Positions 20,870 to 60,712 of a DNA stretch of 64,000 nt are shown here, in pieces (within the stretch, counting starts at the first letter, position 1; every line of letters begins with the position of its first letter). A program made the translations under genes and the position numbers. The notes beneath the pieces were generated by a model that had not been told where the DNA came from, searched no databases, and saw only the letters and a list, made by a program, of their open reading frames with translations. The stretch covers positions 186,001 through 250,000 of the forward strand of contig NW_024881713.1 in the NCBI RefSeq assembly GCF_019059575.1, given 5' to 3'. The DNA comes from Amphibalanus amphitrite (lineage: Eukaryota > Arthropoda > Thecostraca > Balanomorpha > Balanidae).

Positions 20870-22619
20870 GATGCTTTTGGCGTGTTGTCCCAGTAAACAT
20901 GCCGACGTCGGCGACTGGGGGGCTCGAATCCCGCCGCCGGTTGATATTTTTGGCGCGTTGTCCCAATAAACATGCCGACGTCGGCCCCGTCGGTCCAACG
21001 ACAAACGATCTCGTCAACCTCGGCCCGACGTCGGCTCGACGTCGGCTGGACTTCGGCTGGACGTCGGAACATGCGGGCATATCCGACGTCCAGCCGACGT
21101 CGGGCCGAGCCTTGGCCCGACGTCGGGCCGACGTCGGTATGTTTACTGGGGAGGCATTAAAAAAAATTAGGGGTAAAGGGGCCCCCTCAGATTTTCATAA
21201 AAAACTGGTCCATTTGTACATTTTTGGGCGCTGATTACAATGGTGAAGTCTGTTTTTCGCCACATATTATACTTTGACCCCTAGAGGCATTCAAAGTTTT
21301 TTTTAGGGGTAGCGGGACCCCCTTAAATTTTCATAAAAAAACTGGCACATGTGTACAGTTTTTGACGCTGATTACAATGGTGAAGTCTGTTTTTCGCCAC
21401 ACATTATACTTCGGCCCCTAGATGCATTCAAAAAATTTTAGGGATAAAGGGACCCCCTTAGATTTTCATGAAAACTGGTCCATTTGTACATTTTTGGACG
21501 CTGATTACAATGGTGAAGTCTGTTCTTCGCCACATATTATACTTTGACCCCTAGAGGCACTCAAAGTTTTTTTTTAGGGAAGGGGGACCCACTTAGATTT
21601 TCATAAAAACTAGTCCATGTGTACAGTTTTTGACGCTGATTCCAATGGTGAAGTCTGTTTTTCGCCACATATTTTACTTTGGCCCCTAGAGGCATTCAAA
21701 AAAATTTAGGGGTAAAGGGACCCCCTTAGCTTTTCATAAAAACTGGTCAATTTGTACATTTTTGGACGCGGATTACAATGGTGAAGTCTACAAATGGACC
21801 AGTTTTTATGAAAATCTAAGGGGGTCCCTTTACCCCTAAAATTTTTTGAATGCCTCTAGGGGCCAAAGTATAATATGTGGCGAAAAACAGACTTCACCAT
21901 TGGAATCAGCGTCAAAAACTGTACACATGGACCAGTTTATATGAAAATCTCAAGGGGTCCCCCTACCCCTAAAAAAACTTTGAATGCCTCTAAGGGTGAA
22001 AGTATAATATGTGGCGAAAAACAACAGACTTCACCATTGTAATCAGCGTCCAAAATGTACACATGGACCAGTTTTTTGTGAAAATCTAAGGGGGTCCCCC
22101 TTCCCCTAAAAAAACTTTGAATGCTTCTAGGGGTCAAAGTAAAATATGTGGTGAAAAACAGACTTCACCATTGTAATTAGCGTCTAAAAATGTACAAATG
22201 GACCAGTTCTTATGAAAATCTAAGGTGGCCCCTTTACCCCTAAAATTTTTGAATGCCTCTAGGGGCCAAAGTATAATATGTGGCGAAAAACAGACTTCAC
22301 TATGGTAATCAGCGTCAAAAACTGTACACATGGACCAGTTTTTATGAAAATCTAAGGGGGTTCCCCTACCCCTAAAAAACTTCGAATGCCTCTAGGGGTC
22401 AAAGTATAATATGTGGCGAAAAACAGACTTCACCATTGTAATCAGCGTCCAAAAATGTACAAATGGACCAGTTTTTATGAAAATCTAAGGGGGTCCCTTT
22501 ATGGACCAATTTTTATGAAAATCTAAGGGGGTCCCCCTTCCCCTCAAAAACACTTCGAATACCTCTAGGGGCCAAAGTATAATATGTGGCGAAAAACAGA
22601 CTTCACCATACACCAGCTT

Positions 22620-36859: not shown

Positions 36860-36996
36860 CTAGCCGAGCAGGCGGCGCAGGCCAGCGGCGGCCCCCAGCA
36901 GCAGCAGAGACAGCGTCGCACCGCTGGCCGAGTTGCAGCGCATGTTCTCGTGTGTGATAGTGAACTGGATGCTGTCCGGGAACGGGCACTCGTCGT
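36860..36996 (-). CDS. Visible exon 18: C terminus with GPI-like tail
   Basis: The acceptor is CTTTTCAG. It encodes DECPFPDSIQFTITHENMRC, then NSASGATLSLLLLGAAAGL and RRLLG before TAG (36860-36862). The small-residue site and short hydrophobic end without a cytoplasmic tail suit GPI attachment, though the hydrophobic stretch is short and a tail anchor cannot be excluded. Confidence 0.85.
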
Positions 36997-39900
36997 CTGA
37001 AAAGGAGATGGAGTCGTGCTGACTGAGACTTTATTGATGAGCATCAGGTATAAGTAAGTCTTTGACGGGGAGACCCCGCCCGGACCATGTGAACCTGAGT
37101 CGCTCACGGCATGCCTCGCTACTCCACGTATCGGGACATACATACATTCGCAGGCTGTTAGAGATGACGGGAGCTCTTTCAGTGAACCCACTCCCCACAG
37201 AGCACTGCACAACCCTGTGCAGACGGAGGTTACGGAATAAGGATACAAACCTGTGCCGACGGAGGTTACGGAATAAGGATACAAACCTGTGCAGACGGAG
37301 GTTACGGATACAAACTCAGTGCAGACGGGGTTTATGCGGTCACAAACCTGTGCACACGGAGATGGCGGACGTCTTCTCGGGGTTCTGCTGGATGGAGAAG
37401 TAGAGCGGCGGGCAGTCGTCGTTCATCTGGTCCTCGGAGCAGGGCGTGCCGAGCTCGAACTCCACCTGACTCGACTGGGAGGACTCTGCCGGGGAGACGA
37501 CGGATGCCGCGCAGCGGGGAGGAGGGTTACGGCGGGAAACCGAGACCACAATGGGGGCAGGGGGACAACGGAAACAGATATCAAATATATAGCCACCGAC
37601 CTTTGACCTCTGAGGGTGTGCAAAAGTGTACTCGTATCATGCAGCCAAACATTGTAAGTCTTGAACGCAGAGACGAAACCTGCTTCATTACAGTCAACGT
37701 TAGCGAATATATTAACCCTCGCCGGCACAGGCCATTTTGAGTCCTTCGACGGCACAAGGGGGGGGGGTTGGTACGACCCCCCCTCGCGTTTGGCCCCTGA
37801 TCGAGCTAGAGCTTCGCGAAAAAAAAAAACGAGCGTGTTGCCCGTCACGAGAGGAAGCCGATGATACCCAATTTTAAGGTCCTAGGTCATCGGGTGACCT
37901 TCCAGGTCAGGTCAATGACCCGAAAACCGGAAAAATCGGGACCTGTGTCGTAAAGTGTGGCTGCTATGTGGTTTTCCGGGGTGCTGATCACGAATATCGT
38001 GTTAGTTTTGATCAGAGATGATGTCTTTAAGCATTTAGACCAGGTCGGGTCAGGTCAGGTCAGGTCAACCGGTAGGGATTGTGACGGGTATTCGTAATAC
38101 GTGTCAACCGCCTCGGACAGCTTCGTAACATGTTACGAAGGCACCAAAACTACTTCGTAAATGTTCAAATGGTTGCTAAATTCGAAATCAGCTCCAAAAA
38201 CTAGCCTAGAAACATGTAAAACTCGAAAAAGTGAACCGAGGTCACCCGAGGTCACCAAAGGTCAATGACCTGACCTGACCTTCAGGTGACCTTGACACCC
38301 ACCCTAATGCATGGGAGCAACATCAAATCACATGTTTGAACGTTTGAAACCACGAAAAGCTTGCAAACGCGCGGCTAATGCGAGCCGACACGCGCCGAAC
38401 CGCGATTTCGGCCAAACATGGTCACAGAAAAGAGGTCACAGGTCAAAGGTCATTGGGGTCAGGGTCATGAAATTTTCAGGGTAGGTGTAAAATTGATCAA
38501 TGCGAGGGTACAGAAAGTTTCGTCAGTTGTGCCCTCGGCGGTGTGAGTGCGCCGTGTCAGTGCGGGTTCGCGTCGGTACGGGCGCGCGGCTCGCTCCTCG
38601 CGTCGGCTCCGTCGCGGACTGACCGGTGGAGACGCACTGGGCGTCATCGGCGTCGACAGGGGCCTGCGGATCGGTGCGGCTGAGGCAGACCTGCAGGGGG
38701 CCGTACACCGACTCGAACTGAAGCGGAGCAAATAGCACACGGCGCTCAGACCAACGAAAACCCAGACACAGCGGTCAAACAGTACACGGCGCTCAGACCA
38801 ACGAAAACTCAGACACCACGGCGGTCAAACAGTACACGGCGCTCAGACAAACGAGCACACAGACGCGCTAACGGGCGCATATCTCTCCCGATAGCAGCTG
38901 AATAGACATCTTTGTGTTTAAGATCTAATGAAAGACGATGCCCATAGCAGTGCGTCACAATCGAACTTTCTAAACGCATAAAATATCCGATTCAGCGATC
39001 ACAATTATGAAAAGAACGAAGTTAAAACATCACCAGTGGAACATTCTGACACCATCCATCCCATGAAATCGGTCACTGGAGTACAGGATACCGTCCGTTC
39101 CATCTCGGGCACTGACCTGGATCTTGAGGTCGTTGCTGGAGAAGAACTGCTGCGGCCCGACCCGCAGGTAGGTCACCTTGTTGGGTTCGACGTAGTAGGT
39201 GTACTCGTGGTTACCCTCGTTGACGTTGGTGAACATTGGGTCGTCCGTGTGGCAGGCGGGGTACACGAACCGTGACGGCGCTGTAGGGTGCAAAACATGG
39301 CGTCAGGCGGGGTACACGAACCGGGACAACGCTGTGCGGTACAGAACAGGAGTACAGAACAGGGCATCAGGCTGCACATAAGTCTACACGTCAGGCTACA
39401 TAACTACACGAACCGGGACGGCGCTGTGGGACGTCAGGCGAGGTGCACAAACCAGCACATTGCCACGTTGATATATGTCGCTTGCAAGTTCCTCTAGTGC
39501 CATGGAATCTCAAGCACCATGCCCCCCCCCCCGCTGAAGTGAACTGAGAGGACTAGAGTCAAACACTGAGTGCAGGTTGATACTTGACAGTGCCGCTAAG
39601 CATTGGTGTGCGCGGTCACGGCATACATATCGGTCGGCTGGGGAGCCACTTACCACCGAACAGTGCAGCGCTCACCCGCATACAGTACAGCTTAGTACAC
39701 CTTCAAGGTGTTATCGAGGACACATTTACCTTACCAATGTCACCGTTTCTTTACAGAGGTCATGCATAGTTACCTTACCGAGATCACCTTTACTTTACCT
39801 TACCGAGGTCAGTCACCTTACCGAGATCAACTTACTTAACCTTACCGGGGTCACGTTACCGAGGTCACGCTCGCCACTGACCAGCCGGAGTGCTGTGGCA

Positions 39901-42900
39901 CTGACTACCGGAGCTGAGATACCGCCAGCCCAGCCCAGCGCTGCACACAGCCCGGCGTCCCGCTGCCGTTTAGCTTACCGTGGCACATGTTGGTGATGAC
40001 CTCCGGCACCAGGGTTTCGCGGGTGGCGCGCTGAGAGGACTCGGACGCGAACATGTTGTCGGCCAGGAACTGGCGCCGGTCCATCGCCTGCTGGATGTTA
40101 CTGAACGACCCCTGGCTGTCCGACACCGTCATGATGTTGATGTCTGCCGGAGATATTGCGGGCGTCGGGCGCGACGCAGAGGCAGCGGCTGTCAGCTCGG
40201 CTGGTGCTCCATTTACATATACACCTACCCCTATAGATATGGCGATTCCTGTTTCCAAACAGGAAAAGAAACACAGCACGAGCTGTGGGGTTTCGAGATT
40301 CGTTGGGTCGAATTCGAATGGGCACTATCGATATGACGGTTCATGATAAGTGTCAGTAAGAATGCTCGCAAGTGTACTTACTGTGTGGTACACTTCGCCA
40401 CTATACCGTATTAAAAAGATATCGCGCTTAGTGTTGCTTGGAAAATGAAAGAAAAGTTGCATTATGTTACGGACAACATGTGAAGTATCACTGCTTGTCA
40501 GTCATCGTTTTTCTTCTGTGGAACATTTAACTGGGATGCAACACTAACAGCCTCTCATACCTACCTACAGTACCTACTCATGCAAAGGAAATGCCACTCC
40601 AATCATTTAAATGCTTAAGAGTCCGGAGAGTGATTAGACGGAATCAGTCGCCCTTTGTGGCGCCGCTACGAGTGGGTTTCGACATACCTACGGCATGATA
40701 AGGCCGGCTTCAGGACCTGCTATCTGCTCAATCGAGTGTGCAACAGCGGACTTCGTCCATATGACTATTCCGGACTCCTTTGCAGATTGCGGAACGTTGG
40801 GCAACGATAGAATATGGCCGCGGGCTGATGTGTCACCGGTCTCTATGTTTGCCCTTATCTTGAAGTTGTACGACTGCACGACTTAATCATTGCTTTGAAA
40901 CTTCCAGGGATTCATAAAGGTTTGGTCAAATTTATCTTCTCAGAGGGCCTGCTTTAACCTTTATCTTGGATGATTGACATTGGTGAAATAAAATCATGTC
41001 ATTTTAGCGACCTCCTCAGCAAGTTAATGGGAGAGAAAATAAACTGAAATGCGCTTCTGTCAGACAAAAGTCCTGTAAGCACCCCGATTTTTCGCGACAC
41101 AGGGCGGTTCGCTCACCGGGGAACACTTCGCAGAGGTTGTTGAGCATGGTGGTGATGTCCTCGTCGCTGTTGCTGAAGCCGCTGCCGAACCTCATCAGCA
41201 GCAGCACCTGGGTGTTGGACCGAGAGGCGCCCTGCACGGAGACACACAGAGCTCAGACACAGAGCTCAGATAGCCGCTCACAGAGTTCAGATACAGAGCT
41301 CACACAATACGCACCAAGCTCACACACAGAGCCAGCATACGGAGCTTACACACATAGCTCAGATACAGAGCTACAGAGTTCAGATACAGAGCTCACACAT
41401 AGTTACAGTCAGAAGTTACACACAGAGCTTACACACAGAGTTTACACACACAGAGCTCACACACAGAGCTCGGATAGAGCTCACACACAGAGCTGGGATA
41501 GAGCTCACACACAGAGCTCACACACACAAAGCTCACATGCAGAGCTCAGACGACGACGGCCGTCCGACGGAGGCAAGGAGGACTAAAAGAAATCAGAACG
41601 AGGACAACGGAGCTCGTGCTCCTTTCTCAGGGCTATGAACATTTTGATATATGGATTTACCGACATGGACAAAAATAAGGAGTTTGACTTGTGAGTTAGT
41701 AACTAATGTCTGGATTGCCAGCCATTAGGATCAATTATGTGATTGTAACTGTAGATTTCATGACGCTCAACTGTAACCTAACTATTTCAGTGCGTTGTGT
41801 TATCTTTCAAAATAAATCGAAATTTATGCATGATGTAGGTACGCATGTATACCTACATCATGACTGCAGGATGATGTTCCACTCCTCACAAGCTATCAAT
41901 TGACTGAAATGCTAGTCGGTGCCGACTCTCTCGAAATCGCGCCACACCACAGGGCCATACCTACTGTTATTTCAGCCCGTGTGATGCGGCACAGCCTACC
42001 ATTCCAGGCAACTGGCCACCCGTGAGAAGTGGAGCGTCGTTCTGCCCGAGAGGTGTCTGAGGCCAAGTCAGCAGTGCAGTCAGAGACACACATGACATCG
42101 CCATATGGACTGTGGAGCGTAATGCGCAGGCCCTGACCATTTACGCTGACCGGAAGAGGTGGCTAGCGACGGTAGAATTTAGATTTGTACGATAACCTGT
42201 CCACATCATCTCACACGTGATTTTTTCGTTAGCCGTCGAAATTTGGCCTGTAAGTAACGGACCGAATAGCTGCCAATGATCCCAACCATCTCCGTCAGGA
42301 ACGAGCTAGGTAGAGCCAGGGCTGCTCAAGCTGGGGTTTGACTACATCGATAGGGAAACACTCGACCGTTTTCCGCATCACGCCAGTGGGCGAGCAACTC
42401 GACCGCCATTCTGACAGTAACTAATGAACAGCAACAGTAACATCAGTTTTACGGTTCTAGTGACGGGCTTTGCGCTAGTTACAAAACATGTCGCAACATT
42501 CTAACGAAATATTGCATATGATTTCGACGCGATAGGTAGGTTATGTGGAAAATGATGAGTAACGATTTTCAATGGCCTTGAACATAGCATCAGGTATACG
42601 ATGAATTGTTACTTATGGTGACCATATTCGACTCACAGTACGCTAAATGTCCTTGAATGAGCAGCTAAGGAACATTCCAATGAAGTTCGGTTGGATTTAT
42701 GACCACCAGGGAAGCAAAGCAAAGTAATATGAAACAGGAAAACACAATAGAAACATTTACATTGCACATTGTTCAACACCATGCAAATTGTAAACAGTCG
42801 AAGTCCAATAACTCAGCACAGATGCCGCCTATTACCATGGAATTTCAAAAGACTTCATGGCCGACTCTGGGCCGCTGTAACCGATTCCGTGTCACCCGGT

Positions 42901-45900
42901 GGTCCGTGTATTCCGCGCTCTGCAGCCAACCGCCAACAGACGCCGGCCCGTACTCACATCGTTGGCCTCCTGGTCCAGCATATCGGCGTAGTAGGTCATC
43001 AGACGGTACAGAGTAGCCACCAGGTCGTACTGCCCGTCCGGAACTGAAACACATCAGACAAAACAGCGTAAATCGTACCGGAGCTGGGTACACAAAAGGT
43101 TATCATTTGGAAATTGAAATATGATATTGTAAGTCTAATAATATGCATACAAAAATAATTCTTAGACACCGCCTCAGCATCATTTGGTTGACATGTGCGC
43201 TATGCTAGTGAATCTGGAATTGCGCTACGTTTATATTCATACTCGTATTTACCTGTCATGTGACAATGTTCAGCTTCCTTAATTTCAAATATAATAAGCA
43301 TAACTGTGATCGAAAACAATAAGAAAACAATGGTTATGGGTACCACACCGATAAAAATACCTAAGTAAAACGCAAATGACAAACAAAACTCGTATAAAAG
43401 CAGCAATCACTCAGATATGATGAATGTCTCATAACTTGAACTACCTGATTATATACATACATACTTTCGAGGTGATGAAGGAGTGCCAGCATGAGCAGCC
43501 GGATGAGCAAAAGGTGAATCATTAGCTAACTACTTTAGAGAAGCTAGGATGAAAATGATCGAATAATATAATATTTTAAAAATAATCGAATAAAATAAGT
43601 CGATTCCGGAGCACGAAAAGCACTGAAAAGCTTATAACCAATTTCAGATTTCAAAAATTGGTGTTTCACAAGAGTCGTGGAAGTCACAGGAGGGCTCCGC
43701 TCCCAGTGTTTAGCCGGTGTCGGAGCTGGGACGGTAGCGGGTGTCGGGCCCGACCCAGCCTCTCACCGTCCACACGCTGGATGTCGCAGGCCAGGCGCGC
43801 CTTGTTGGTGTAGTTCCACTTGTCCAGCAGCACGGCGCCGTCCTCACCGCTGACCAGGTGCATGTACGACTTGTTCCAGCCCACGTCCAGCGCCAGAGCC
43901 AGCTCCCTGCGCCGAACATCGGAAACACACGGCGGGTCGGAACAGTGCAATAGCACGCTGCCTATGGGAGCTCAGCTCCGGCCAGAGACCCGCCCGTCGG
44001 CCGCAGAGAGGGCTGGTGGGCGGCTGCGTCCCTCAGGGTACCCTGGCTGTGCAATGCGCTAGGGAAGACATGAGCGTGTGAACGGGAAGGTGCAGTGTCG
44101 GTGGTAGCTCTGACATCGCAGCACTGCCGAACTAGAGTTTTTAGTTTCCCCGGAAAGGACAACAAGTGTCCACCCTGATCATTGCCCTGCTGTTGAAAAC
44201 GCACGGGCACGCAATGGTGCCAAAAATGGGCAAACGAAAAAAAAATGTTCCAGGAACTCACGACAGAAACAGAGGTGTAACAGAGAATGTCCGATGGACT
44301 CACGAGAGGAAGATTTTCTGCGCCTGCGCTCCGATGCCGCTGACGCTCGGGTCGAACACGGCAACCACGTCCGCCTTGGTGGAGCACGTCGGCTCGTCGG
44401 GGGTGGCGCCCTGCGCCGGCACGTTCTTGCAGCCGGGGCCGTCATCAGTCATCGACTTACCTGGCCGGTCAGTCACGGTCAGGTCACAGCTCTGGGGCAC
44501 ACCCAGACGCCCGCGGCACGCTCTATGCCAAATCAGGGTCATTCAGAGGTCAGCTGTTTTATGGTTTGGCCAATGCTTTTGCACGAAACAGCATAAGAAG
44601 AAATATCTGCATAAACATACGCTATAGGTACAGAATTGGCGCAATGTGGTATACCTCATACCCGCCTACAAAAGAACATATGAGACGATAAATCTCAAAT
44701 AAGAAAACACCGAGTCTCAAGTAAAAACCTATAGAACAACATAACTACATGTCAATCGGATATCAACTTTTTGGTATACCGTTACCAAACCGATACCAAC
44801 TTGGTAGGTATTTGGTATTTCAATACTAAGGCTTTCGGTATTGTGTTGGTATTATGAATCCTGACTAATGTAAAAGAGGCAGCTAATTTGGTATAAAGTT
44901 GGTATTTTTCTCATTTTCCAAAGTCGGTGCGGTTTCGGTATTTTCTCATGGTTTTTGTTGGTATTTGGTTTGGTATCGGTATCACGATTTTCCGTAATTG
45001 ACATCACTAAACATAACCATACATGATTAAGTTGTCACCTGATATCGAAACTGAGTGTGCTCTAACGCTAGCCGATTCGCCCTAACCTAACTGACCGGCA
45101 AATGGGTGAATGACACGCTGAACGCCAACAGACAAGACGTCATGTTTATGAAATGATGAATTGTCTGTGATGTAATGTGGTGAGTTCAGATATAACTACA
45201 TACACGCCACATGGCTGAAATGCGTGCAATTACATACACGCCACATGGCTGAAATGCGTGCAATATGCATAAATCCACCTATTTATGCAATATACATAAA
45301 TCCACTAATCCTGAAATCGTATTTTTGCAACGCAATTTTTCTTTTATATCATGCAACGATATCCGAGCGGGGAATTGGAAGTGAACAGGTAGGGTTTATT
45401 GTTCAGTTTGGCCGGTCATCTCACCCGCGAAGTCGTTCAGCTGCTCGATGACATTGGTCATCAGGGTGTCCATGGCCTCGTCCAGGCTCTCCTGGTTCAG
45501 CATCGGCATCCGGCCCAGGTCGGCCGAGTAGTAGGCAAAGCCAAAGTTGACCGCCTGTAACACGCCAGACGACGTGAGGCAATCGACTCATCCGTTCACG
45601 CAAACGATAGCCAGCAACGAATTGAAAAAACGCGGGCCGTTTTGCTTACAATACAAGTGTACCACATTACATTAGTTGTGGCATCCTAACTGTGAGTCGC
45701 CGCTTTCCAACTTCATCATTTATTTCATCCCCAACCCTTCAGTTGACATCCGAGCCCTACGCTATCCCCGCAGGGAAGAGTGGGGCAAAGCGGCCACCCT
45801 AACGCTTCTTACAATGCCAACGCTTAATTTTTAAAATTTGAAAGATTCTTTCTATGCCAATTTGATCCCTATTAAATTGTCTTTTATTTCAACTCCGTTT

Positions 45901-51900: not shown

Positions 51901-54900
51901 TCCGTGTACCACAGAAAAATGACGACGGGCCGGAAACTCTGGTCTGGCTCATTCGGACGACCGCAAAGAGGAGAATAATTGACAACCATATATTGGACCT
52001 GACGCCAGCTGTGGCGGGCTAAAACGATGGGTGGCCGCTTTGCCCCGGGTGGCCGCTTTGCCCCACTCTCCCCTACTGACCTGGGTCTTTCGCACTGACC
52101 TGGGTCTTGAGCGTGTCCTGGTTGACCAGGTCATCGTTGAGGAAGTTGGTGAGCCGGTCGCAGGCGCGGAACTGGCGGTCGTAGCTCACCCCATCGGGAG
52201 AGTAGTACATACGCAGCAGTGACGACAGTCGGAATCCGGTCTGCTTGGACCAGCGGTAGATCTGCGAGCCGAGCAGGTACCCTGCGGGCGCCACGGCACG
52301 GTCACACCGACACACCCGGATCCGAACCGCGCCATATGCACTCGCGCTTTTCAACGAGTATGCCTGAGTAAGTAACAAAGCATATCTGATTCAATAAAAT
52401 ATACCTGATCAAGTAGCCTAACTAATCAATTTTTAGGTCGAATCAGCCGGGAGCAGCGTGACTGCAGATACGCAGCTTTCGTTTTCGACAGCGGTCCCAT
52501 CGGCCGTGAACCGTCTCCGAGCCCAGCCCATGTCCGTGCCATCGGCCGAGTGTCGTCTCCGAGGAGCCCAGCTGCGCCTACCGTCGATGCCTCCGTAGAT
52601 CTCTGCGTTGGTCAGCGCCGAGATGGCGTCGCTGTCGGGCATGTTGTACTCGTGGGGGCAGTAGGTGCAGTTCCAGTAGCCGGTCGGACCGATCACCTGC
52701 GGCGCGTTGTTGTTCTGACCGCCGCCCTCGTAATGCAGCGCCGTCTGAGCAATGTCGCCTGGCGGGGCCGCGGCAGGGGTCAGGGGGTTGGAGAGCCACG
52801 GCGCGGGGTCAATGGGGAGAAGCGGCGGCTGGCTGAGAGAATTTAAGGTGAAAGCAGACATTGAACAATTTTTTACTGTGTGATATAAAATGCTTATTGG
52901 TTAGTGAGCTACATTTTGAAATAAATTTACGAAGCACACACATTAACAGCTCCCTATGGAACAGCAGAAACGCAACCTGATAATGACTTCTGATATAGGT
53001 ACATTTAGTGCTATATTAAAAAAGTAGCCACTTATACATAGTGGTTCAAGGTCTCCACGTAACACAATGTCCATCGCTCCTTTATGTCAAACCAATGCAA
53101 TATGTCATAGCAGTCAGGTCATCAGCAACTGTCGGACAGATACCTTCATAATATCTGTTTTGAACTACTGGGAACCACATATTTCGCTGCCACCTAGCAC
53201 CTGCGATATCACATGGCCCCATATGGGAGCCCTTGAGTCACGGGGACCACCCCACACCTGCATCCACGGGGAACCGCCTGTACCCACGGGGAGCCACCTT
53301 TACCCACGGGGACCGTCTGGACCCACGGGGAGCCGCCTGTACCCACGGGGAGCCGCCTGTACCCACGGGGAACCGTCTGTACCCACGCGGACCGCTTCGC
53401 ACAAGCAGCTGGGGCCACCTGGGCCCACTGGGACCGCCGGAGACCAGTTGGGACCACATGTACCCACGAGGGATCACGTGCACCCGCACGGACCGCCGCA
53501 GACTGCCGCGCCGGCTCCCTCACCGGCTATCGTGGTCGCCCAGATGTTGTTGATTTGCAGCCGGCGCTGTTGGTCGCTGAGCGACTGCATGGTGAGCGTG
53601 TCTGCACCCACGGTATCCTCCACGCTGACGTCCTGCTCGGAGAGACCGGCCGCCAGACCTGCAGGGAAAGGAAGGGGGTTTGTGACGTGCTGGGCGGACA
53701 GACCTGCAGGACAGGGAGGGGGTTTGTGACGTGCTGGACGGACAGACCTGCAGGACAGGGAGGGGGTTTGTGACGTGCTGGACGGACAGACCTGCAGAAA
53801 AGGGAGGGATTCGTGACGTGCTGGACGGACAGATCTGTAGGACAGGGAGGTGACGCTCTGGACAGACAGGCCTGTAGGGCTGGGAGTGAGGAGACGTACT
53901 GGACGGACAGGCCCACGGGAGAGTTAGGATTAGGTGACTTCTCGGACTCAGCCTCCAAACCTCCGGTGGGGAGCGGGAGGTTCCCGCCTCACGGAGGCCT
54001 GATCAGACGGACCTCCGGGCGGCGCGGTGGTGGAAAGAAAGTGACGTTGTTGGGCAGTTGACATATTATAATGCGACTATGATACACATCACACTGACCT
54101 ACATCTACCTAGAGGAGCCGGTCTGCGACTGACCTGCTATGAGTGAGCCGGCCGCCACTGTGCCGTACGGCGAGTAGATGACGCCCAGCTCCAGCGGGCA
54201 GCTGCTGGCATCCTCTTCCACCACGTTACCGCTGCTGGGGACAGGCCGACGTCAAACCACGCTCCCTATGTGGGACAGGCCGACGTCAAACCACGCTCCC
54301 TATGTGGGACAGGCCGACGTCAAACCACGCTCCCTATTTGGGACAGGTCGACGTCAAACCACGCTCCGACGTCAAACCACGCTCGGACATCAAACCACGC
54401 TACCACCGGGACAGGTCGACGTCAGACCACGCTCCCTTTTTGGGACAGGTCGACGTCAAACCACGCTCCCTTTTTGGGACAGGCCGACGTCAGACCACGC
54501 TCCCTTTTTGGGACAGGTCGACGTCAAACCACGCTCCCTATTTGGGACAGGCCGACGTCAGACCACGCTCCCTTTTTGGGACAGGCCGACGTCAAACCAC
54601 GCTCCCTATTTGGGACAGGCCGACGTCAGACCACGCTCCCTTTTTGGGACAGGCCGACGTCAAACCACGCTCCCTATTTGGGACATGCTGAAGTCAGAGC
54701 ACCGGCCGTCAAACCTCTGATAATGGACCACGAATCATCAAATTTCGCTCTTTTTTCTTCAACTTTCGCTCTAGCGGCAGAGCAGACAACACGGCCGCCG
54801 CAGAAATATTGTGCAAACATGGAGATGCGTGAAGTTGCGCCAGTGGGTACCTATATGTCCTGGAACTCTCCAATGGTTACGAAAAGTGTTTTTAACTGTT

Positions 54901-57900
54901 GAACATTAACCTTCGGTTACACTTAGTGATAATGAAAAGTGCATAGGTAGGTACCATTTGCAATTTTCCCGTTACGTGTAGGACATTATACCGCTCTGGT
55001 ATGTGGGTAATGATCTACTCAAAGTGCAATTCTAGTAGGTAGCAAGCTATTGTAATTATGTTGGTCGGAGCAGTGCAAACCAACCGATTTGCAATGAAAT
55101 GTCGCTCTGACACGACACTGCTGAGTTGTTTTGCATGATGCATAAACTCAAGAACTTGGCTTACTCACCCGCTGCAGAATATCCAGCATTGCATGAAAGA
55201 AACGTTCAATGAAATGTCAGCCAATTTTGCAAATAAAGCAGCGATTCCGTCAAATCGCAACATGACACAATAAAAGGAAAACTAATGCTTAATTTTAATG
55301 TGTTCTCTATCTGCCGAGTTTTTATTCTGAAACAACTAATCGTTAACTAGTATCAACGCATTGACAAACTCATTGGTAGGTATAGTACAATATCATTTTA
55401 CCTATCTTTGAGCTTTCATGACGCGCCACCTATGACATGTTCATGCTCACTTTTGCCCGATCGACCCCGTCTTACCTAAAAATGTATGTACACAAATCCT
55501 CCGGCGGTCTTATGAGACCGCTATCGTGGAGGTGCCGCTAACGTACACAGAACCTTCGGCAGGACCTGCTGGCTGCTAACGTACATAAATCCTCCGGCAG
55601 GAGCGCTTGCTTACACAAATCCTCAGGCGGGAGTTGCTAGCTTACACAAACCCTCCAGCAGGAGCCGCTCACTTACACAAACCCTCCAGCAGGAGCGGCT
55701 AACTTACACAGATCCTCCGGCAGGAGCCGCTCACTTACACAAATCCTCCTGCGGTTTTGGCCGAGGAGCCGCTGGAGGAGCTGCGCGAGTTGTAGCGACG
55801 GGCGGCGCGCCGGCGTCGGCGTCGGCGCCGGAACGACCTGGCGCAGTAGTCGTTCTCATCCTCGCGCTCCGTCTCGTTCACAGAGTGGGACAGCATCCAG
55901 TGCATGGTGCACTGTCGGGAGTAGGAGCGGGGGGCGAGGCATATCAATATTTCTTATTGTCATGTACATAGGCGCATATTTGGTGCATAGTTGCATGCAG
56001 TTAAACAAAAAATCGTACACATGATATTTTCCGTGATGAAAAATCACCCAACCGTTCAGTCATCCGTGAGTGATATCCATGTTCTCAATTAATAAATAAT
56101 CTCTACCTTTTTCAAAGACTGTTTTCAGTCACTGAGGGTAAGCGTATTGGGCACACACTGAAAACCAAAATGAATCTCCTGATGCCCTGATCATTGAAGT
56201 CTATACCCCAATTATTCCCTTTTGATCTCTTCATTATACCTATGGGGTATATTCATGGAATCGCAGTTGGCTTCATATTCCCATGATATTCCCTCGACCT
56301 CCATGAATTATTGATTCTCTTAATAAGCTCTTGATATCACCCTGTGAGAACCATATTATGCCATTGATACCCCAAATGATTCTGCATGATTCCGTGCGTA
56401 TAAGATGCTGTTGATACCCCAGTCGCTGATAGTTATGCCTTTATGATTCTCTATCTATTCTTGCAATATACCCTTTCATTGCCCAGAGGGTATCTTGCCG
56501 GAATCACAGGGAGGCTCATATTCCCTTGAGATGCTTTCATATTCTTCTGTTATGCTTCCTTTGCCTGATTCTTTCAAAATACTCTTGATATCACCCGAGT
56601 AGAACCATAGTATTCCTCAATGATTCTTCGCTGGAGGCATCAGGAACGCGCCAAAGGTCCGCCATTTTTCTCCGCCATTTCCGGTGATCAGTGAAGAGCG
56701 GTGTTGGGTGCTGTGTGGTTGCGAGTGGTGCCATTTTTAGGCTGGAATTGAGCCTTATTGAGGGTGAGTACCATCCTAAGCAGGAACTCATATGACGAAT
56801 GACGATGAAATGCTTGGATTGACTTAGGCCCTTCATTTTTCATATGTAGTGTTCTTCTAAGGTTGCGTGTACTTGTGCTTCTGATGTCTAAATGAGATCA
56901 TTACTATACAGCATTATATTTGTTTAAATAGGTAGGTACCCAACAGTTGAACATCGTTGCTCTGATACATGTTAACTTCTTACATATCGAGTATAAGCAA
57001 ACCTGTTCAACCAATCTTATACAAAATGCATTGGGGGGGGGGGGGGATTGCCTCATACTCTTGAGTATTGTGTGAGCATCCCTGGAGCCGTTAGTGTGAA
57101 TAAAAAATATTCTCAAATGAGTAAGTGATATGTCCGTCGTCCTCCTTGCCTGATCCACAGAGGACGCGGCGCTGGTACTGCTGCGCCTTCTGGGTGAGGA
57201 GGGAACGGTCGTCATGGAGGCGCCAGCGGCGACGATGACACGTCCCCTGATACACGAGCGGGAGACGAGTTCGACATCGTGGTCGAAGAAACAGTGGTGG
57301 CCAGCGCCCAGTGCCTTGAAGAGGCACTCCTTCTCTTCGGGGTCGCCTACTACGTCTTCAACCAGAAAGTGTCCCGTGCATCGCGCTCCACGATGTGGTT
57401 CATCGTCCACGACATCATGGGGCTGCCGGCAGAGTCAACAGCGACGGCGGACGCGCTGAAAAATCTGTCGGTGCTGACAGCATAGTGTGCCCGCGCAGTG
57501 AGGTAAGCCCAGGGGCGGAGTGGAGACGGAGTGATGGACGGAGATGATGGAGACGGACGTGATGGCCCGCCCCACAGGGAAAGGGGTCACAAGCGGCATG
57601 GGCGGGCCTGTTGACATCCTGTGGCAGCCCCTGGGCTACGTTGTCGGACTTTCTTGAGGTCAGGGAGGGAGAACTCGTAGGAGCCACACGCTCAACTTTC
57701 GTTGTGTAGCGAAGGTGGGAAAAACCACGCCATTTGAAGGGGCACCGGTTGTTTTGCGACTCCTTCGTAAGAGTCGCAAAACAACGGTCATCGTAGAAGA
57801 GCCAGCGGCGCTTCTCGTGTGTCATGTGTTTTTTTACAGCCTGGATCTCAACATGTGATATGGCATTTGTTATTTGTTTGTTATTGTATGAGGCGTGTGC

Positions 57901-60712
57901 GTGACGTATGTTTAATATGGATAGTATGTACATACAAATTGAATGTCTCTTGGCAACTATAGGAAGCTGTGATTTTGAAATGAATGCAGAGGCAGTTGTC
58001 TTTCCAATCAATACAGTACGTTTTTCTTATACACACAAGCGTATCGTGGTTGCTGTTGGTGTGGCTGAGCGTCGATGGCATGGGCGGATCCAGGAAATTC
58101 AGAGGAAGGGCGAAGGTGGTTACATAAATGGCGTCTCTTACCTTTGTGTGGGTAAAGAAATCAGTGCGCTAGGTATCTCATGGGGATCTCACGAGGAATA
58201 GCATGACCCCGCGAGCCCATCCCTTGATCCGCCACTGCGGAACGAAGCATCAATGGGGTGTATAGAGAGCATCAAAGGAGCATCAATGTGGTGCATAGAG
58301 AGCATCAAATCAGCATCAATGGGGTATATAGAGAGCGTCAATGGGGTATGTAGAGAGCATCAAAGGAGCATCAATGGGTATATAGAGAGCATCAAAGGAG
58401 CATCAATGGGGTTTATAGCAAGCATCAAAGGAGCATCAATGGGGTATATAGATAGCATCAAAGGAGCATAGATCGGGTTTAGACGGAGCATCCGAACTAT
58501 GCTAGGGGGCATCAAAGGGGCATAGAGGAGATTCAGGGGGAATACACTAGGCATTTCGTAAGAATAATGGAGGCATAACCAGATAATCATTTTGATTCCA
58601 CTTAGCCATCCAACAGGCATATTAGGGTAATAATGTTGGGATATTGGGGGTATCTAAGGCCAAAAAGGTGCTACTTGAAGTATATTACGGGAATAATTGG
58701 GGTTTCGTTTTAGACCATTCTCCTAATATCACACCCCCGGAATCATTTTAGTTTTCAGTGCATGTCTTACCCTTTCCTCCAGCGTGAAGGCTTCGTCGGG
58801 GAAGTTGGCATTGGCCAGCTGGACGAGCCGTGTCATCATCTGGTACTTGGAGTTCTCCGGCTGGATGACCGTGTACGGCTCCAGGTAGGAGGACATCTCA
58901 GAGTTGACGTTCTGCCGAAACACACCACATTAGCACTGGGAGAGAGGACGGCTGGAGAGAACCGTGTACGGCTCCAACCTCAGCGGTGGGACGGCTACAG
59001 GACCGTGTACATACAGCTCCAGCCTCAGCAGTGGGAGGGGGACGGCTGGACGATCGTGTACGGCTTTGAGGACATTTCCGAGCTGACTTTCTGCCGCACC
59101 ACATGGGCAACCTCAGCGGTTGGAGATAGGGTAGCGATAAAGTCCATTTATATCGATCTATGTATTAATCAATTCTTTGATTATATGGTAGGTGAACTAA
59201 CAAAATTCAATGGTGCGACTGGAGACGAACATTGTCCTTTCATCAATTTATAGCATAATAATTATATGGCGATATGTTCATTTTCAAATAGACGTTATGT
59301 ATAAAAAGGAAATAGCACTGTCGTTTTGAGTTTATTCTACCTCAACGTCATTTAAAGTGGCATCCCCAGCGTGTGTCTACAGAAAGCTAAAGTCACATAG
59401 ATATGACGATACAATCACTATCTAAGTACACAGATATTATCAGCATTGCGTGCCTTTGCTTTACGTACGTCAATAGATAAAAATACTAACTATTCAAAGT
59501 ATGTCACTTTCCATTTGAAGGATTAGGACTAGTGTGCTCCTGTGAACTGTGTAATCATGAGCGAGAATCCCATGACAAATAGGAACATGCAGTTGCACAA
59601 GTAAAGTGAATCAGATCATAATCAGTGCTGATGCACTCGATAAGCTGACCAAATACGTCGCAAAGGTATGCGCTATGACATACGAGTGGCAGGTGGGAGC
59701 CGCGGGAGCCAGCCCGTATCAGGTGTCTACCTCGCACGATGGGTTTTAACTGGGGTCGCCGCTGGACCGGTCGGGTCGGATCTCTCCGGATGGGTCCGGA
59801 GTCCGGACCTCACCTGGTCGATAATGCCGTCGTATCGGAAGCGGCGCATCAGGCTGGCGGTGATCCGCTGTGGCGACATGTTCTGTGCCTGTGAACTGTG
59901 CTCCAACTTCTCGATAAGGCCGATCAGCTGGTCAATCGACATACCCTGCGGCACAAAACGAAAACGTACACAGGTTTATGAATACGGTGTATAACCTCAA
60001 AAACCTTTTGCCATATCCTGTCTGAAAACTCCGTTTTTTTCCAATATAAAGCGCTTTTCTAATGAGAAATGTTTTAGCTTTTGTATACAAATCGCCGCTT
60101 ATCTAGTTACGGTGTGTAGTATGACACCTGTGTGCTTCCTTACTGAGTCACTGAGTGATTTCAGATATCTACAAAGCATTCGATACCTACCGAACAAAAA
60201 ATTGATCAGAGTTGCTTTATCAAGTCAACAACCATTCAGCATTACATATGTACTGATTACAGCCATACATTCAGTTTTTTTTTTAACTTTTTCTGCGATA
60301 CGATGCGATCATTTCAAAGAATAAGACTTAAGTCTGTCCCAGCATGCTCATTGCTCACGTCTCCAGTGACCGACATTCTGCCGCCTGTTTACCTGTCTCC
60401 AGTGACCGACACTCGTCCGGCTGCCGCCTGTTTACCTGTCTGTCTCCAGTGACCGACATTCGCTCCTGCCGCCTGTTTACCTGTCTCCAGTGACCGACAC
60501 TCGTCTGACTGCTGCCTGTTTACCTGTCTGTCTCCAGTGACCGACATTCGCTCCTGTCGCCTGTTTACCTGTCTCCAGTGACCGACATTCGTCCGACTGC
60601 CGCCTGTTTACCTGTCTGTTGGCCCTGTTGAACAGCTCGTAGTTTTCATCCTTGTAGCACTGGTAGATGTTGTCTGGGATGAGTGCCGAAACCACACCAG
60701 CCAGCAGAAGCA
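36860..60712 (-). CDS. Secreted, probably GPI-anchored protein of unknown family; 18 visible exons
   Basis: Exons (5' to 3'): 60612-60712, 59814-59945, 58771-58911, 55739-55911, 54134-54234, 53524-53658, 52582-52758, 52100-52281, 45425-45554, 44304-44460, 43767-43906, 42958-43043, 41117-41231, 39979-40143, 39117-39280, 38624-38717, 37348-37485, 36860-36996. All junctions are AG/GT and every phase agrees, giving about 822 residues. The N terminus has a hydrophobic core (LLLAGVVSA). The C terminus has small residues (NSASGA), a short hydrophobic run and a stop, as in GPI-anchored proteins. Sequons NET, NCT, NKS and NYT fit an extracellular protein. A DxSxS-like motif in exon 10 (FDPSVSG) with a later hydrophobic strand in exon 13 (QVLLLMRFGSG) hints at a VWA-like fold. 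The order is not that of calcium-channel alpha2/delta subunits. The start-codon exon lies upstream, unseen. Only the acceptor of exon 10 needed a choice between sites. Confidence 0.85.
37205..37347 (-). repeat. Intronic repeat of the exon 17 donor junction
   Basis: Units of about 28-36 bp repeat CTCCGTCTGCACAGGTTTGT beyond the real donor. Two extra copies (around 37248 and 37284) keep CAG/GT intact; two others are mutated. Confidence 0.8.
37348..37485 (-). CDS. Visible exon 17
   Basis: The phase runs from 1 to 1. It encodes SSQSSQVEFELGTPCSEDQM and NDDCPPLYFSIQQNPEKTSA. The donor ACAG/GTTTGT is repeated in degenerate form downstream. Confidence 0.86.
37726..38510. mobile_element. CCCTCGCCGG-family TTAA element, right end missing (copy H)
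   Basis: TTAA at 37722-37725 is followed by CCCTCGCCGGCACAGG and a G-run / GGTACGACC / C-run subterminal motif. AGGTCA arrays lie at 37885-37920, 38040-38068 and 38246-38290. It is in the intron between exons 17 and 16. No matching right end was found. Confidence 0.6.
38624..38717 (-). CDS. Visible exon 16
   Basis: The phase runs from 0 to 1, acceptor CGCTTCAG and donor ACCG/GTCAGT. It encodes FESVYGPLQVCLSRTDPQAP and a Cys-containing acidic end. Confidence 0.85.
38740..38875 (-). repeat. Intronic repeat of about 50-55 bp near exon 16 acceptor
   Basis: There are three copies of a unit with GGCGCTCAGACCAACGAAAA about 20 bp from the acceptor. It does not copy the splice site itself. Confidence 0.7.
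39117..39280 (-). CDS. Visible exon 15
   Basis: The phase runs from 1 to 0. It encodes SRFVYPACHTDDPMFTNVNE and VEPNKVTYLRVGPQQFFSSN. The sequence across its acceptor recurs twice in the upstream intron. Confidence 0.87.
39281..39445 (-). repeat. Intronic copies of the exon 15 acceptor junction
   Basis: The minus-strand motif ACAG/CGCCGTC-x-CGGTTCGTGTA, spanning the true acceptor, recurs at 39332-39333 and 39424-39425 with the AG intact. Confidence 0.78.
39979..40143 (-). CDS. Visible exon 14
   Basis: The phase runs from 1 to 1. It encodes DINIMTVSDSQGSFSNIQQA and RRQFLADNMFASESSQRATR, ending VITNMCH. Confidence 0.87.
41117..41231 (-). CDS. Visible exon 13
   Basis: The phase runs from 0 to 1. 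It encodes NTQVLLLMRFGSGFSNSDED and a helix ending CEVFP. Its acceptor lies beside a GAGCTCTGTGT-type repeat. Confidence 0.86.
41238..41545. repeat. CACAGAGCT minisatellite next to exon 13 acceptor
   Basis: Irregular 10-16 bp units of ACACAGAGCTCA supply a long pyrimidine-rich tract on the minus strand upstream of the acceptor. Confidence 0.8.
42958..43043 (-). CDS. Visible exon 12
   Basis: The phase runs from 1 to 0, acceptor TTTCAG and donor GAT/GTGAGT. It encodes PDGQYDLVATLYRLMTYYA and DMLDQEAND. The frame was too short to stand out on its own but fits its neighbours exactly. Confidence 0.85.
43767..43906 (-). CDS. Visible exon 11
   Basis: The phase runs from 2 to 1. It encodes ELALALDVGWNKSYMHLVSG and DKWNYTNKARLACDIQRVD, with NKS and NYT sequons. 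Confidence 0.87.
44304..44460 (-). CDS. Visible exon 10: possible VWA-like motif
   Basis: The phase runs from 1 to 2. I chose the acceptor GGCCAG at 44461-44462; a longer form starting near 44525 would also keep phase. It encodes ADVVAVFDPSVSGIG, where DPSVS fits a DxSxS metal-site pattern, and two cysteines just upstream. Confidence 0.75.
44755..44990. repeat. Degenerate TTGGTAT-rich stretch
   Basis: Loose repeats of TTGGTAT/ATACCAA on both strands lie in the intron between exons 10 and 9. No fixed period or ends could be defined. Confidence 0.5.
45425..45554 (-). CDS. Visible exon 9
   Basis: The phase runs from 0 to 1, acceptor GTTACAG. It encodes AVNFGFAYYSADLGRMPM and a helix with DEAMDTLMTNVIEQLNDFA. 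It is separated from exon 8 by a 6.5-kb intron filled with nested elements. Confidence 0.87.
46631..49795. mobile_element. Element with CAGGGGC(G/C)TCGCC ends nested in copy I
   Basis: Imperfect inverted ends CAGGGGCGTCGCC and GGCGAGGCCCCTG lie beside G-rich tracts. Comparison with copy B shows that this is where continuous family 2 sequence was split. No clear 8-bp duplication was seen. It carries a half-site core (47265-47410), a piece of the CCCTCGCCGG family (about 47690-48220) and a CACGTG block (48622-49474). Confidence 0.55.
48622..49474. repeat. CACGTG-rich block, related to 34979-35656
   Basis: It is in reverse orientation, with GAGCGAGCGAG at one side and CGCTCGCTCGCTCG at the other, a (GGGCC)n tract at 49377-49407 and GCACGTGCGCACGTGC twice. 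Confidence 0.6.
50303..51332. mobile_element. CCCTCGCCGG-family element, copy J, adjacent to copy I
   Basis: It starts CCCTCGCCGG directly after the TTAA at 50299-50302 and ends CCGGCGAGGG, followed by TTTTAAA. G-run / C-run palindromes lie at both ends. It contains the half-site core (50575-50760) and the GACTTATAATGG block near 50965. It is 1,030 bp, with no transposase. Confidence 0.75.
52100..52281 (-). CDS. Visible exon 8
   Basis: The phase runs from 1 to 0. It encodes YLLGSQIYRWSKQTGFRLSS and LTNFLNDDLVNQDTLKTQ. The donor CAG/GTCAGT is duplicated 19 bases downstream; only the first keeps the phase. Confidence 0.87.
52582..52758 (-). CDS. Visible exon 7
   Basis: The phase runs from 1 to 1, donor GACG/GTAGGC. 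It encodes GYWNCTYCPHEYNMPDSDAI, with an NCT sequon and a CxxC, then ALTNAEIYGGID. Confidence 0.87.
53271..53410. repeat. 20-bp minisatellite TACCCACGGGGAGCCGCCTG
   Basis: There are about six copies, some mutated, in the intron between exons 6 and 7. Open frames over it are repeat shadows. Confidence 0.85.
53524..53658 (-). CDS. Visible exon 6
   Basis: The phase runs from 1 to 1, acceptor TTTCCCTGCAG. It encodes LAAGLSEQDVSVEDTVGADT and QRRLQINNIWATTIA. Its acceptor is reiterated in the upstream intron. Confidence 0.86.
53661..53930 (-). repeat. 44-bp minisatellite reiterating the exon 6 acceptor
   Basis: On the minus strand each unit ends CCCTCCCTGTCCTGCAG/GTCTG. The true AG is at 53659-53660; extra AGs are at 53704, 53748, 53792, 53835 and 53872 (start of each CT on the plus strand). 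Pyrimidine tracts are preserved in at least three. Confidence 0.85.
54134..54234 (-). CDS. Visible exon 5
   Basis: The phase runs from 2 to 1. It encodes GNVVEEDASSCPLELGVIYS and PYGTVAAGSLIA. The acceptor CCCCAG/CAG allows a 3-base NAGNAG choice (54234 or 54231). It directly abuts a 34-bp minisatellite. Confidence 0.82.
54235..54690 (-). repeat. 34-bp minisatellite abutting the exon 5 acceptor
   Basis: About 13 full copies of GGGACAGGCCGACGTCAAAC plus CACGCTCCCTATTT. On the minus strand the unit contains CCTGTCCCAAATAG, and the junction copy reads CCTGTCCCCAG at the real acceptor. Long frames across it arise because 34 is not a multiple of three. Confidence 0.88.
55480..55738 (-). repeat. 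31-bp minisatellite reiterating the exon 4 donor
   Basis: On the minus strand GGAGGATTTGTGTAAG recurs exactly every 31 bp: true donor at 55734-55738, further GTAAG at 55703, 55672, 55641 and 55610, then decayed copies to about 55490. Confidence 0.9.
55739..55911 (-). CDS. Visible exon 4: eight-arginine stretch
   Basis: The exon runs from phase 0 to phase 2. It encodes CTMHWMLSHSVNETERED, then CARSF and eight consecutive Arg followed by AARRYNSRSSSSGSS. The basic run could be a proprotein-convertase site in a secreted protein. The donor TTTGT/GTAAGT is the seed of a 31-bp intronic repeat. Confidence 0.85.
57160..57485 (+). pseudogene. Element-encoded ORF fragment
   Basis: The frame from 57198 to the stop at 57483-57485 encodes an acidic N part (GDDDTSPDTRAGDEFDIVVE) and a segment with LFGVAYYVFNQKVSRASRST. 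The latter recalls, from general memory, short C-terminal segments of transposon-associated zinc-finger proteins. An apparently coding stretch in another frame just upstream (ALVLLRLLGEEG) implies a frameshift near 57215-57250. The match is weak and the function unknown. Confidence 0.4.
57748..57785. repeat. Perfect 15-bp hairpin
   Basis: GTTGTTTTGCGACTC and its exact complement flank the 8-base loop CTTCGTAA, inside the CACTG element. Confidence 0.85.
58250..58475. repeat. 33-bp minisatellite CATCAAAGGAGCATCAATGG
   Basis: About seven units with a period near 33 bp give an 11-residue repeat in one frame. It lies within the CACTG element and is not a gene. Confidence 0.85.
58771..58911 (-). 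CDS. Visible exon 3
   Basis: It has 47 codons, phase 0 to 0, acceptor TTTCGGCAG and donor AGG/GTAAGA. It encodes NSEMSSYLEPYTVIQPENS and a helix rich in Leu/Ala. Decayed copies of its first part lie in the intron at 58945-59100. Confidence 0.87.
58945..59100 (-). repeat. Decayed tandem copies of part of exon 3
   Basis: GGAGCCGTACACGGTTCTCT and similar strings repeat the exon segment coding for LEPYTVIQP. The copy at 59040-59098 also keeps an acceptor-like GGCAG and would read VSSEMSS. Confidence 0.7.
59814..59945 (-). CDS. Visible exon 2
   Basis: It has 44 codons, phase 0 to 0, acceptor GCCGCAG and donor CAG/GTGAGG. It encodes a likely helical segment (IDQLIGLIEKLEHSS) and RRFRYDGIIDQ. Confidence 0.87.
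60355..60611 (-). repeat. 43-45-bp minisatellite reiterating the exon 1 donor
   Basis: GAGACAG/GTAAACAGGCGGCAG recurs on the minus strand: true donor at 60606-60611, copies at 60563, 60518, 60475, 60430 and 60387, all with GTAAAC intact. Confidence 0.9.
60612..60712 (-). CDS. Visible exon 1: end of signal peptide and mature N terminus
   Basis: The acceptor is TGTTTTAG; the first two bases complete a codon begun in an unseen exon. It encodes LLLAGVVSA followed by IPDNIYQCYKDENYELF, a signal-peptide core with a likely cleavage after Ala. The donor CAG/GTAAAC (phase 0) is repeated five more times in the intron. Confidence 0.85.

What the first reader, a model, noticed from the sequence alone, without database searches (positions are those of the whole stretch)
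37205..60611. One gene, many introns with repeats grown from their own splice junctions
In the minus-strand gene, repeats copying or touching the exon-intron boundary occur at the donors of exons 1, 4, 8 and 17 and at the acceptors of exons 5, 6 and 15, with exon 3 partly duplicated. Several arrays keep functional-looking GT or AG sites in every unit. Such recurrence in one gene suggests a mechanism that seeds tandem duplication at splice junctions, or selection for decoy or alternative splice sites.
Basis: seen in the sequence. Interest (0 to 1): 0.85.

Follow-up and report, generated by a model that had tools for sequence, protein, structure and literature searches.

The report
Repeat arrays copying splice junctions
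In this arthropod gene many short repeat arrays are copies of the gene's own exon-intron borders and differ between the two copies of the gene in the genome; the likeliest reason is that a repeat-prone genome tolerates such copies, not that splice sites attract them.

Summary
The minus-strand gene has 18 exons with one open frame. A second, probably allelic, copy on contig C39 has all 18 exons with identical lengths and borders. Units copying or crossing the border lie at donors 1, 4, 8, 17 and acceptors 3, 5, 6, 15; arrays also abut acceptors 13 and 16. Arrays differ between the copies: only C39 has one across the exon 7 acceptor and 57-bp exon 6 acceptor units carrying 33 nt of exon 6. Sampled kinesin and myosin genes of this genome show such arrays at 5 of 79 and 3 of 60 junctions. 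Genome-wide, the donor 9-mer CAGGTGAGT is tandemly repeated only 1.2-1.5 times as often, by locus, as its reversed control; both far exceed chance. 20 of 21 copied sites would truncate the protein. Best reading: junction minisatellites of the lancelet 'mirage' kind in a minisatellite-rich arthropod genome, tolerated because splicing uses the exon-proximal site. Special seeding at junctions is weakly supported; selection for decoys is not. Interest is moderate: a known kind, in a new group.

The parts
36860..60712 (-). 18-exon gene, 841-residue product with a hydrophobic N-terminal stretch and a hydrophobic C-terminus (read from the sequence); no family match
   Evidence: second copy on C39
60359..60619 (-). 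array at donor of exon 1 (junction 60611/60612); units of 43/45 bp, six with CAG|GTAAAC; reaches 8 nt into the exon; 6 units here, 5 in C39
58858..59103 (-). partial copies of exon 3 (start and GGAGCCGTACACGGT motif) upstream of its acceptor (58911/58912); a 91-bp tandem unit in C39
55488..55755 (-). array at donor of exon 4 (55738/55739); 31-bp units with GTGTAAG, decaying away from the exon; 16 nt of exon; one unit fewer in C39
54238..54702 (-). 34-bp array ending 3 bp before acceptor of exon 5 (54234/54235); 238-bp higher-order repeat in C39
53654..53911 (-). 44-bp array across acceptor of exon 6 (53658/53659), units with a pyrimidine tract and CAG; in C39, 57-bp units carrying 33 nt of exon 6
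52075..52108 (-). two copies of AAGACCCAG|GTCAGT at donor of exon 8 (52099/52100); same in C39
41242..41548 (-). AGCTCTGTGTGTG-type array 10 bp before acceptor of exon 13; does not copy the AG
39253..39428 (-). copies of acceptor and first nucleotides of exon 15 (39280/39281); nearest unit 51 bp here, 64 bp in C39
38729..38864 (-). 47-50 bp array ending 11 bp before acceptor of exon 16; fewer units in C39
37209..37361 (-). 36-bp array at donor of exon 17 (37347/37348), CAG|GTTTGT in three units; 12 nt of exon in the array; one 36-bp unit fewer in C39
39768..39869 (-). array with repeated CGGTAAGG 109-125 bp downstream of donor of exon 14; donor-like but not at the junction
53257..53395 (-). 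20-bp CCCCGTGGGTACAGGCGGCT array 128 bp downstream of donor of exon 6

Best explanation
These are junction-spanning minisatellites of the kind named 'mirages' in lancelets. Shown: this genome holds short tandem duplications far above chance at a control word too; some span an exon end plus neighbouring intron; they differ between two copies of the gene, and some exist in one copy only; at TRF score 50 or more their exonic part is confined to the exon ends. Inferred: a duplication across a junction is harmless when the spliceosome keeps using the exon-proximal donor (first copy) or acceptor (last copy), so the extra copies lie in the intron and grow by unequal exchange. Inferred too: the exon end, held constant by selection, remains a faithful template, so arrays are re-seeded from it and look anchored to the junction. 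No splicing function is needed.
For: 41 of 2528 exonic nt in C216 and 85 of 2528 in C39 lie in TRF arrays of score 50 or more, all at junctions. Local-duplication cover falls from 19% of exonic positions within 5 nt of a junction to 1.3% beyond 40 nt. Array at the exon 7 acceptor in C39 only; C39 exon 6 units identical over 33 exonic nt and joined to an older-looking unit at the shared ACGTCA. Arrays differ between the copies at most of these junctions (exon 8 unchanged) while the coding sequence is 98.5% identical (37 of 2526 nt differ, dS 0.050, dN 0.005). Polarity: 9 of 9 correlations negative. Same kind of array in sampled kinesin and myosin genes, 5 of 79 and 3 of 60 junctions. High background: control 9-mer pairs 111 against 0.39 expected by chance. 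20 of 21 copied sites would truncate the protein. Lancelet mirages are reported to be spliced normally and to vary in length (PMC3087553, PMC3902484, passages seen).
Against: No RNA data, so use of the exon-proximal site is inferred. Without an outgroup, gain in C39 and loss in C216 cannot be told apart for the exon 6 and 7 arrays. With a 40-bp or unit-length seed null the arrays of the gene touch junctions more than expected (7 against 1.44 and 1.03, P 5e-4 and 6e-4), so some extra affinity for junctions is not excluded. The raw genome-wide donor/control rate is 1.41 (Fisher P 0.002, places not independent). Five of the nine polarity correlations are weak (rho -0.04 to -0.37), and two of the nine concern exon 13, whose units carry almost no exon. 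At the lower TRF score of 36 one 22-bp repeat lies inside exon 10 and one overlaps the end of exon 18.
Confidence: 0.68

Rival explanations
1. A process targeted at junctions seeds tandem duplication there, for example breaks or slippage at transcribed, pyrimidine-rich or CAGGT-containing borders.
For: Array placement in the gene against seed nulls, junctions within 12 bp of an edge of a duplication locus 7 against 1.6, P 0.003; seed-null excess in kinesin (P 0.029) and myosin (P 0.014) genes; raw donor/control rate ratio 1.41.
Against: By locus the genome-wide ratio is 1.19-1.48, P 0.38-0.15. Whole-array nulls: C39 6 against 4.3, P 0.23; kinesin 5 against 4.9, P 0.57. Against intron positions, 1 of 35 junction probes is below P 0.05 and 0 of 35 below P 0.02.
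Confidence: 0.2
2. Selection keeps the copies as decoy or alternative splice sites that tune splicing or make frame-shifted, decaying transcripts.
For: Several copies keep full-strength sites, for example exon 1 (score 7.2 in all six), exon 8 (10.9 in both), exon 6 (8.4, 8.4 against 9.7). Decoys that trigger decay could regulate level.
Against: 20 of 21 copied sites truncate the frame and 17 of 21 add a length that is not a multiple of three; copy numbers differ between the gene copies; sites in distal exon 4 units are lost; the exon 7 array exists in one copy only.
Confidence: 0.07
3. The arrays are relics of intron gain by tandem duplication of coding sequence containing AGGT.
For: Units carry coding sequence next to AG or GT; the model is published (PMC2891723 passages; PMC3087553 passages).
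Against: All 17 introns exist in both copies at the same positions; each array sits near one end of its intron, and the introns are 258-16031 bp long. Similarity between the two ends of one intron was not tested.
Confidence: 0.05

Closest known systems
'Mirages': minisatellite-like tandem duplications of exon-intron borders in lancelet Adh3, globin, troponin C and PGBD5 genes (PMC3087553 and PMC3902484, passages seen; the original Adh paper not seen)
   Same: Units span the border, at donors and acceptors; many but not all units keep AG or GT; number of units differs between haplotypes; unit lengths of tens of bp to about 160 bp
   Different: Here in an arthropod, ten junctions of one gene touched, and arrays present in one of two gene copies only; splicing and somatic instability not tested
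Intron gain by tandem duplication of AGGT-containing coding sequence (PMC2891723 passages seen; PMC4974935 and PMC3443670 seen in the search listing only)
   Same: Short tandem duplication that doubles splice-site sequence
   Different: No intron gain seen: same 17 introns in both copies
Ordinary intronic minisatellites
   Same: Unit sizes, variable copy number, high background in this genome
   Different: Units include exon ends and splice signals

Membership tests
Mirage (junction-spanning minisatellite) | tandem unit spans an exon-intron border | tested here: met
   arrays cross donors 1, 4, 17 and acceptor 6 in C216, and also acceptors 7 and 15 in C39
Mirage (junction-spanning minisatellite) | both 5' and 3' borders affected; AG or GT kept in many units | tested here: met
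Mirage (junction-spanning minisatellite) | length differs between haplotypes | tested here: met
   given that C39 is the other haplotype, which is likely but not proven
Mirage (junction-spanning minisatellite) | regular splicing unaffected | not testable with these tools
   no RNA data
Mirage (junction-spanning minisatellite) | somatic length instability (Adh3) | not testable with these tools
   no reads
Intron gain by tandem duplication | intron present in one copy or relative and absent from another | tested here: not met
   17 of 17 introns shared by the two copies; no relatives held
Selected alternative splice sites | copies preserve reading frame | tested here: not met
   1 of 21 in frame to the end
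Junction-targeted duplication | junction sites duplicated clearly more than matched sites genome-wide | tested here: inconclusive
   ratio 1.19-1.48 by locus, P 0.38-0.15, one donor 9-mer only

The most novel reading that the evidence does not exclude
In this arthropod genome exon ends act as permanent seeds: purifying selection keeps them intact while unequal exchange keeps exporting fresh copies of exon end plus splice site into the neighbouring intron, so a few per cent of all junctions carry living arrays that supply raw material for new splice sites, exon extensions and introns, and can be watched between the two haplotypes of one animal.
Probability: 0.3. Interest if true: 0.65.

Novelty: new member of a known kind. 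Interest (0 to 1): 0.45.

Why it matters
Junction-spanning minisatellites were described, in the passages seen here, for lancelet genes. Finding them in several genes of an arthropod, and differing between two copies of one gene, would make two questions testable: how the spliceosome ignores identical neighbouring sites, and how often such copies turn into new exons or introns. The genome-wide count also warns that recurrence in one gene is not proof of a targeted mechanism where the background of tandem duplication is this high.

Tried and rejected
Gene identity: no Pfam family or solved structure (best E 0.16 and 0.23, taken as chance); no RNA family at gathering score and no tRNA in the window. 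Structure prediction and the scans of viral, metagenome and genome contigs were not used.

Junction-probe test: 1 of 35 junctions was below P 0.05 and none below 0.02 against intron positions, because many intron positions lie in arrays themselves; kept as evidence against special status.

Searches used minus-strand kinesin loci in the wrong orientation; one search showed this by overlap conflicts (5105 against 0), and replace them. Array coordinates that those calls give for minus-strand loci are void.

Rows dropped. Kinesin: of 139 matches I entered 52 on the 20 contigs with loci; 47 lay inside held sequence; 6 of these had stops inside the matched stretch and were dropped, and 3 of 82 junctions scored below 2 and were dropped. 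An array on C975 near one dropped hit was therefore not counted as touching. Myosin: of 100 matches I entered 38 in 10 regions; 5 with stops and 6 of 66 junctions were dropped; one further C1044 place with stops was not entered. The kinesin sample holds near-identical pairs of contigs (for example C405 with C801, C865 with C975), so its 5 touching arrays stand for about 3 genes and its P values are too small.

The 35 donor loci were collapsed by hand from the 100 listed of 304 places; two places on C20, 255 bp apart, were counted as two; haplotype pairs were not merged, in the control neither.

The pattern (GTAAGT pairs 124, reversed control 490) shows that reversed patterns can exceed forward ones, so a single 9-mer is weak evidence; a second donor 9-mer (CAGGTAAGT) was asked for eight times and never answered.

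Collinearity further out: C39:1322001-1332000, where the neighbouring mucin-like gene might lie, gave only one match of 250 bp or more (565 bp, 78%, to a window intron), so it was not shown that far.

Full report
What is there. On the minus strand, window 60712 to 36860, lies a gene of which 18 exons were found. They join into 2528 nt with one open frame and a single terminal stop (the acceptor of exon 10 is at 44520). The first exon found starts at an acceptor, so a start exon is missing. The product has no Pfam or structure relative. A protein search of the window's own genome (807,550,619 bases in 2644 contigs) gave 36 matches, all on the window's contig C216 or on C39. On C39 all 18 exons have the same length and borders. 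The two copies differ at 37 of 2526 coding nt (dS 0.050, dN 0.005) and are collinear over several kb on both sides, broken by other repeats; a stretch further out did not show it. Two alleles kept apart in the assembly are the simplest reading; a recent segmental duplication is not excluded. Other genes also occur as near-identical matches on separate contigs.

Which organism. The cuticle family Chitin_bind_4 gives 150 matches, all of the 150 candidates scored out of 705. That a large number of them marks an arthropod is recalled. A crustacean, perhaps a barnacle, is my guess and rests on no call. The dS between the copies is of the order reported between alleles of Balanus improvisus, 0.061-0.12 in one gene (PMC8270832, passages).

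The arrays. Units copying the border lie at donors 1, 4, 8, 17 and acceptors 3, 5, 6, 15; arrays abut acceptors 13 and 16; in all 10 of 35 junctions are within 12 bp of a local duplication. TRF arrays of score 50 or more cover 2364 of 21325 intron nt and 41 of 2528 exon nt; in C39 85 of 2528 exon nt; every exonic part lies at a junction, up to 33 nt deep. At score 36 a 22-bp repeat inside exon 10 and one at the end of exon 18 are added. Full-strength sites recur in exon 1, 6, 8 and 17 units, weaker or none in exon 5, 13 and 16 units.

Difference between the copies. Exon 1: six units against five; in C39 the junction itself reads GTAATC and one copy GTAAAT. Exon 4: one 31-bp unit fewer in C39. 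Exon 5: a 238-bp higher-order repeat in C39. Exon 15: nearest unit 51 against 64 bp. Exon 17: one 36-bp unit fewer in C39. Exon 8: unchanged. In C39 only: a 41-bp array (2.8 copies) across the exon 7 acceptor, single-copy in C216, and 57-bp units at exon 6 that carry its first 33 nt unchanged, fused to an older-looking unit at ACGTCA. Gain in C39 is the simplest reading; loss in C216 is not excluded without an outgroup. Copies grow less like the junction with distance: 9 of 9 measurable correlations negative, from five junctions, five of them weak.

Is it more than chance? Duplication itself, yes (155 segments against 0 in each of three Markov samples). Placement depends on the null. Introns only: 7 of 15 arrays within 20 bp, 0.56 expected. 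Circular shift: 10 of 23 loci, 4.8 expected, P 0.001; junctions touched 10 of 35, 5.7 expected, P 0.048. Seed nulls: P 5e-4 and 6e-4 for C216, 0.005 and 8e-4 for C39. Whole arrays dropped at random: P 0.019 and 0.23; shifted by up to 300 bp: P 0.19 and 0.44. Junction probes against intron positions: 1 of 35 below P 0.05. A seed null fits how arrays arise, but the gene was chosen for its arrays, so its P values are too small.

Outside the gene. Kinesin motor exons (PF00225; 21 blocks, 78.5 kb, orientation corrected): 5 of 26 arrays touch 5 of 79 junctions; seed null 1.8, P 0.029; whole-array null 4.9, P 0.57. Touching arrays lie at a donor on C975 and C865 and at an acceptor on C789, C405 and C801; C405/C801 and C865/C975 look like pairs, so about three genes. 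Myosin head exons (PF00063; 10 regions chosen for clustered hits before their sequence was seen): 3 of 6 arrays, 3 of 60 junctions; seed null 0.57, P 0.014; whole-array null 1.1, P 0.076.

Whole genome. CAGGTGAGT occurs 9134 times, its reversed control 4644 times. Pairs 21-49 bp apart: 304 against 111, 3.3% against 2.4%, Fisher P 0.002 on non-independent places. Over contigs C1-C214, the range of the list, 35 loci (28 without one dispersed repeat) against 12, ratio 1.48 or 1.19, P 0.15 or 0.38. Chance predicts 0.4 control pairs. So tandem duplication is common at a control word too and this donor word is at most slightly favoured. Many CAGGTGAGT are not donors, which dilutes the ratio; one word was tested, and acceptors not at all.

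How it works. Most likely: frequent small tandem duplications; those inside exons removed by selection; those across a junction harmless because the exon-proximal site goes on being used; arrays then expand and decay in the intron while the conserved exon end can be copied again. The sequence pattern is shown; selection, use of the exon-proximal site and re-seeding are inferred. Decoy selection fits poorly: of 21 copied sites tested 20 truncate the frame and one (exon 6, +45 nt) keeps it.

What is known. The same structures are called mirages in lancelets: PMC3087553 reports them in globin genes and cites Adh3, at both borders, many but not all units with AG/GT, differing between haplotypes, apparently without disturbing splicing, and proposes intron gain from them (passages); PMC3902484 adds PGBD5 and cites troponin C (passage). 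None of the papers listed by the searches is, by its title, such a report for a barnacle or other arthropod; I did not open most of them, and the library lacks most subscription journals. PMC2891723 discusses intron gain by tandem duplication in Drosophila (passages), a different outcome.

Verdict. Observation confirmed and strengthened; interpretation partly supported; a new and dense case, variable between two gene copies, of a known kind.

Noticed in passing
window 5-3831 and 4128-4751 (+): Long ACC-rich repeat that can read TTTEPTTT, followed by a coding-like stretch with a hydrophobic segment: perhaps the end of a mucin-like membrane protein gene.
   Followed up: no
window 25577-31073: Two large arrays of a 278-bp satellite (6.9 and 12.9 copies, 98% match) meet at about 27480 in opposite orientation.
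   Followed up: partly
window 21151-22497: 133-bp tandem arrays on the two sides of 21789 whose consensus units are reverse complements.
   Followed up: no
window 55912-58770 (intron 3): Intron 3 is 2859 bp here and 258 bp in C39, so most of it, with its GATGCTC array at 58246-58526 and a coding-like fragment at 57219-57458 (+), is an insertion or a deletion between the copies.
   Followed up: partly
C39 introns 4, 8, 12 and 13 (C39:1255270-1258408, 1260895-1276925, 1279452-1283630, 1283746-1291093): These introns are 1.6 to 9.5 kb longer in C39 than in C216 (8: 16031 against 6545; 13: 7348 against 973): large insertion differences.
   Followed up: no
G000 contigs C2, C16, C76, C88, C101, C126, C206: A dispersed repeat carries two CAGGTGAGT 23-25 bp apart.
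   Followed up: no
L073 and L075 (C1044, C1366); by coordinates also C868, C1447, C640: Several neighbouring similar myosin exon hits (NGFEQLCINFT), like mutually exclusive alternative exons.
   Followed up: no
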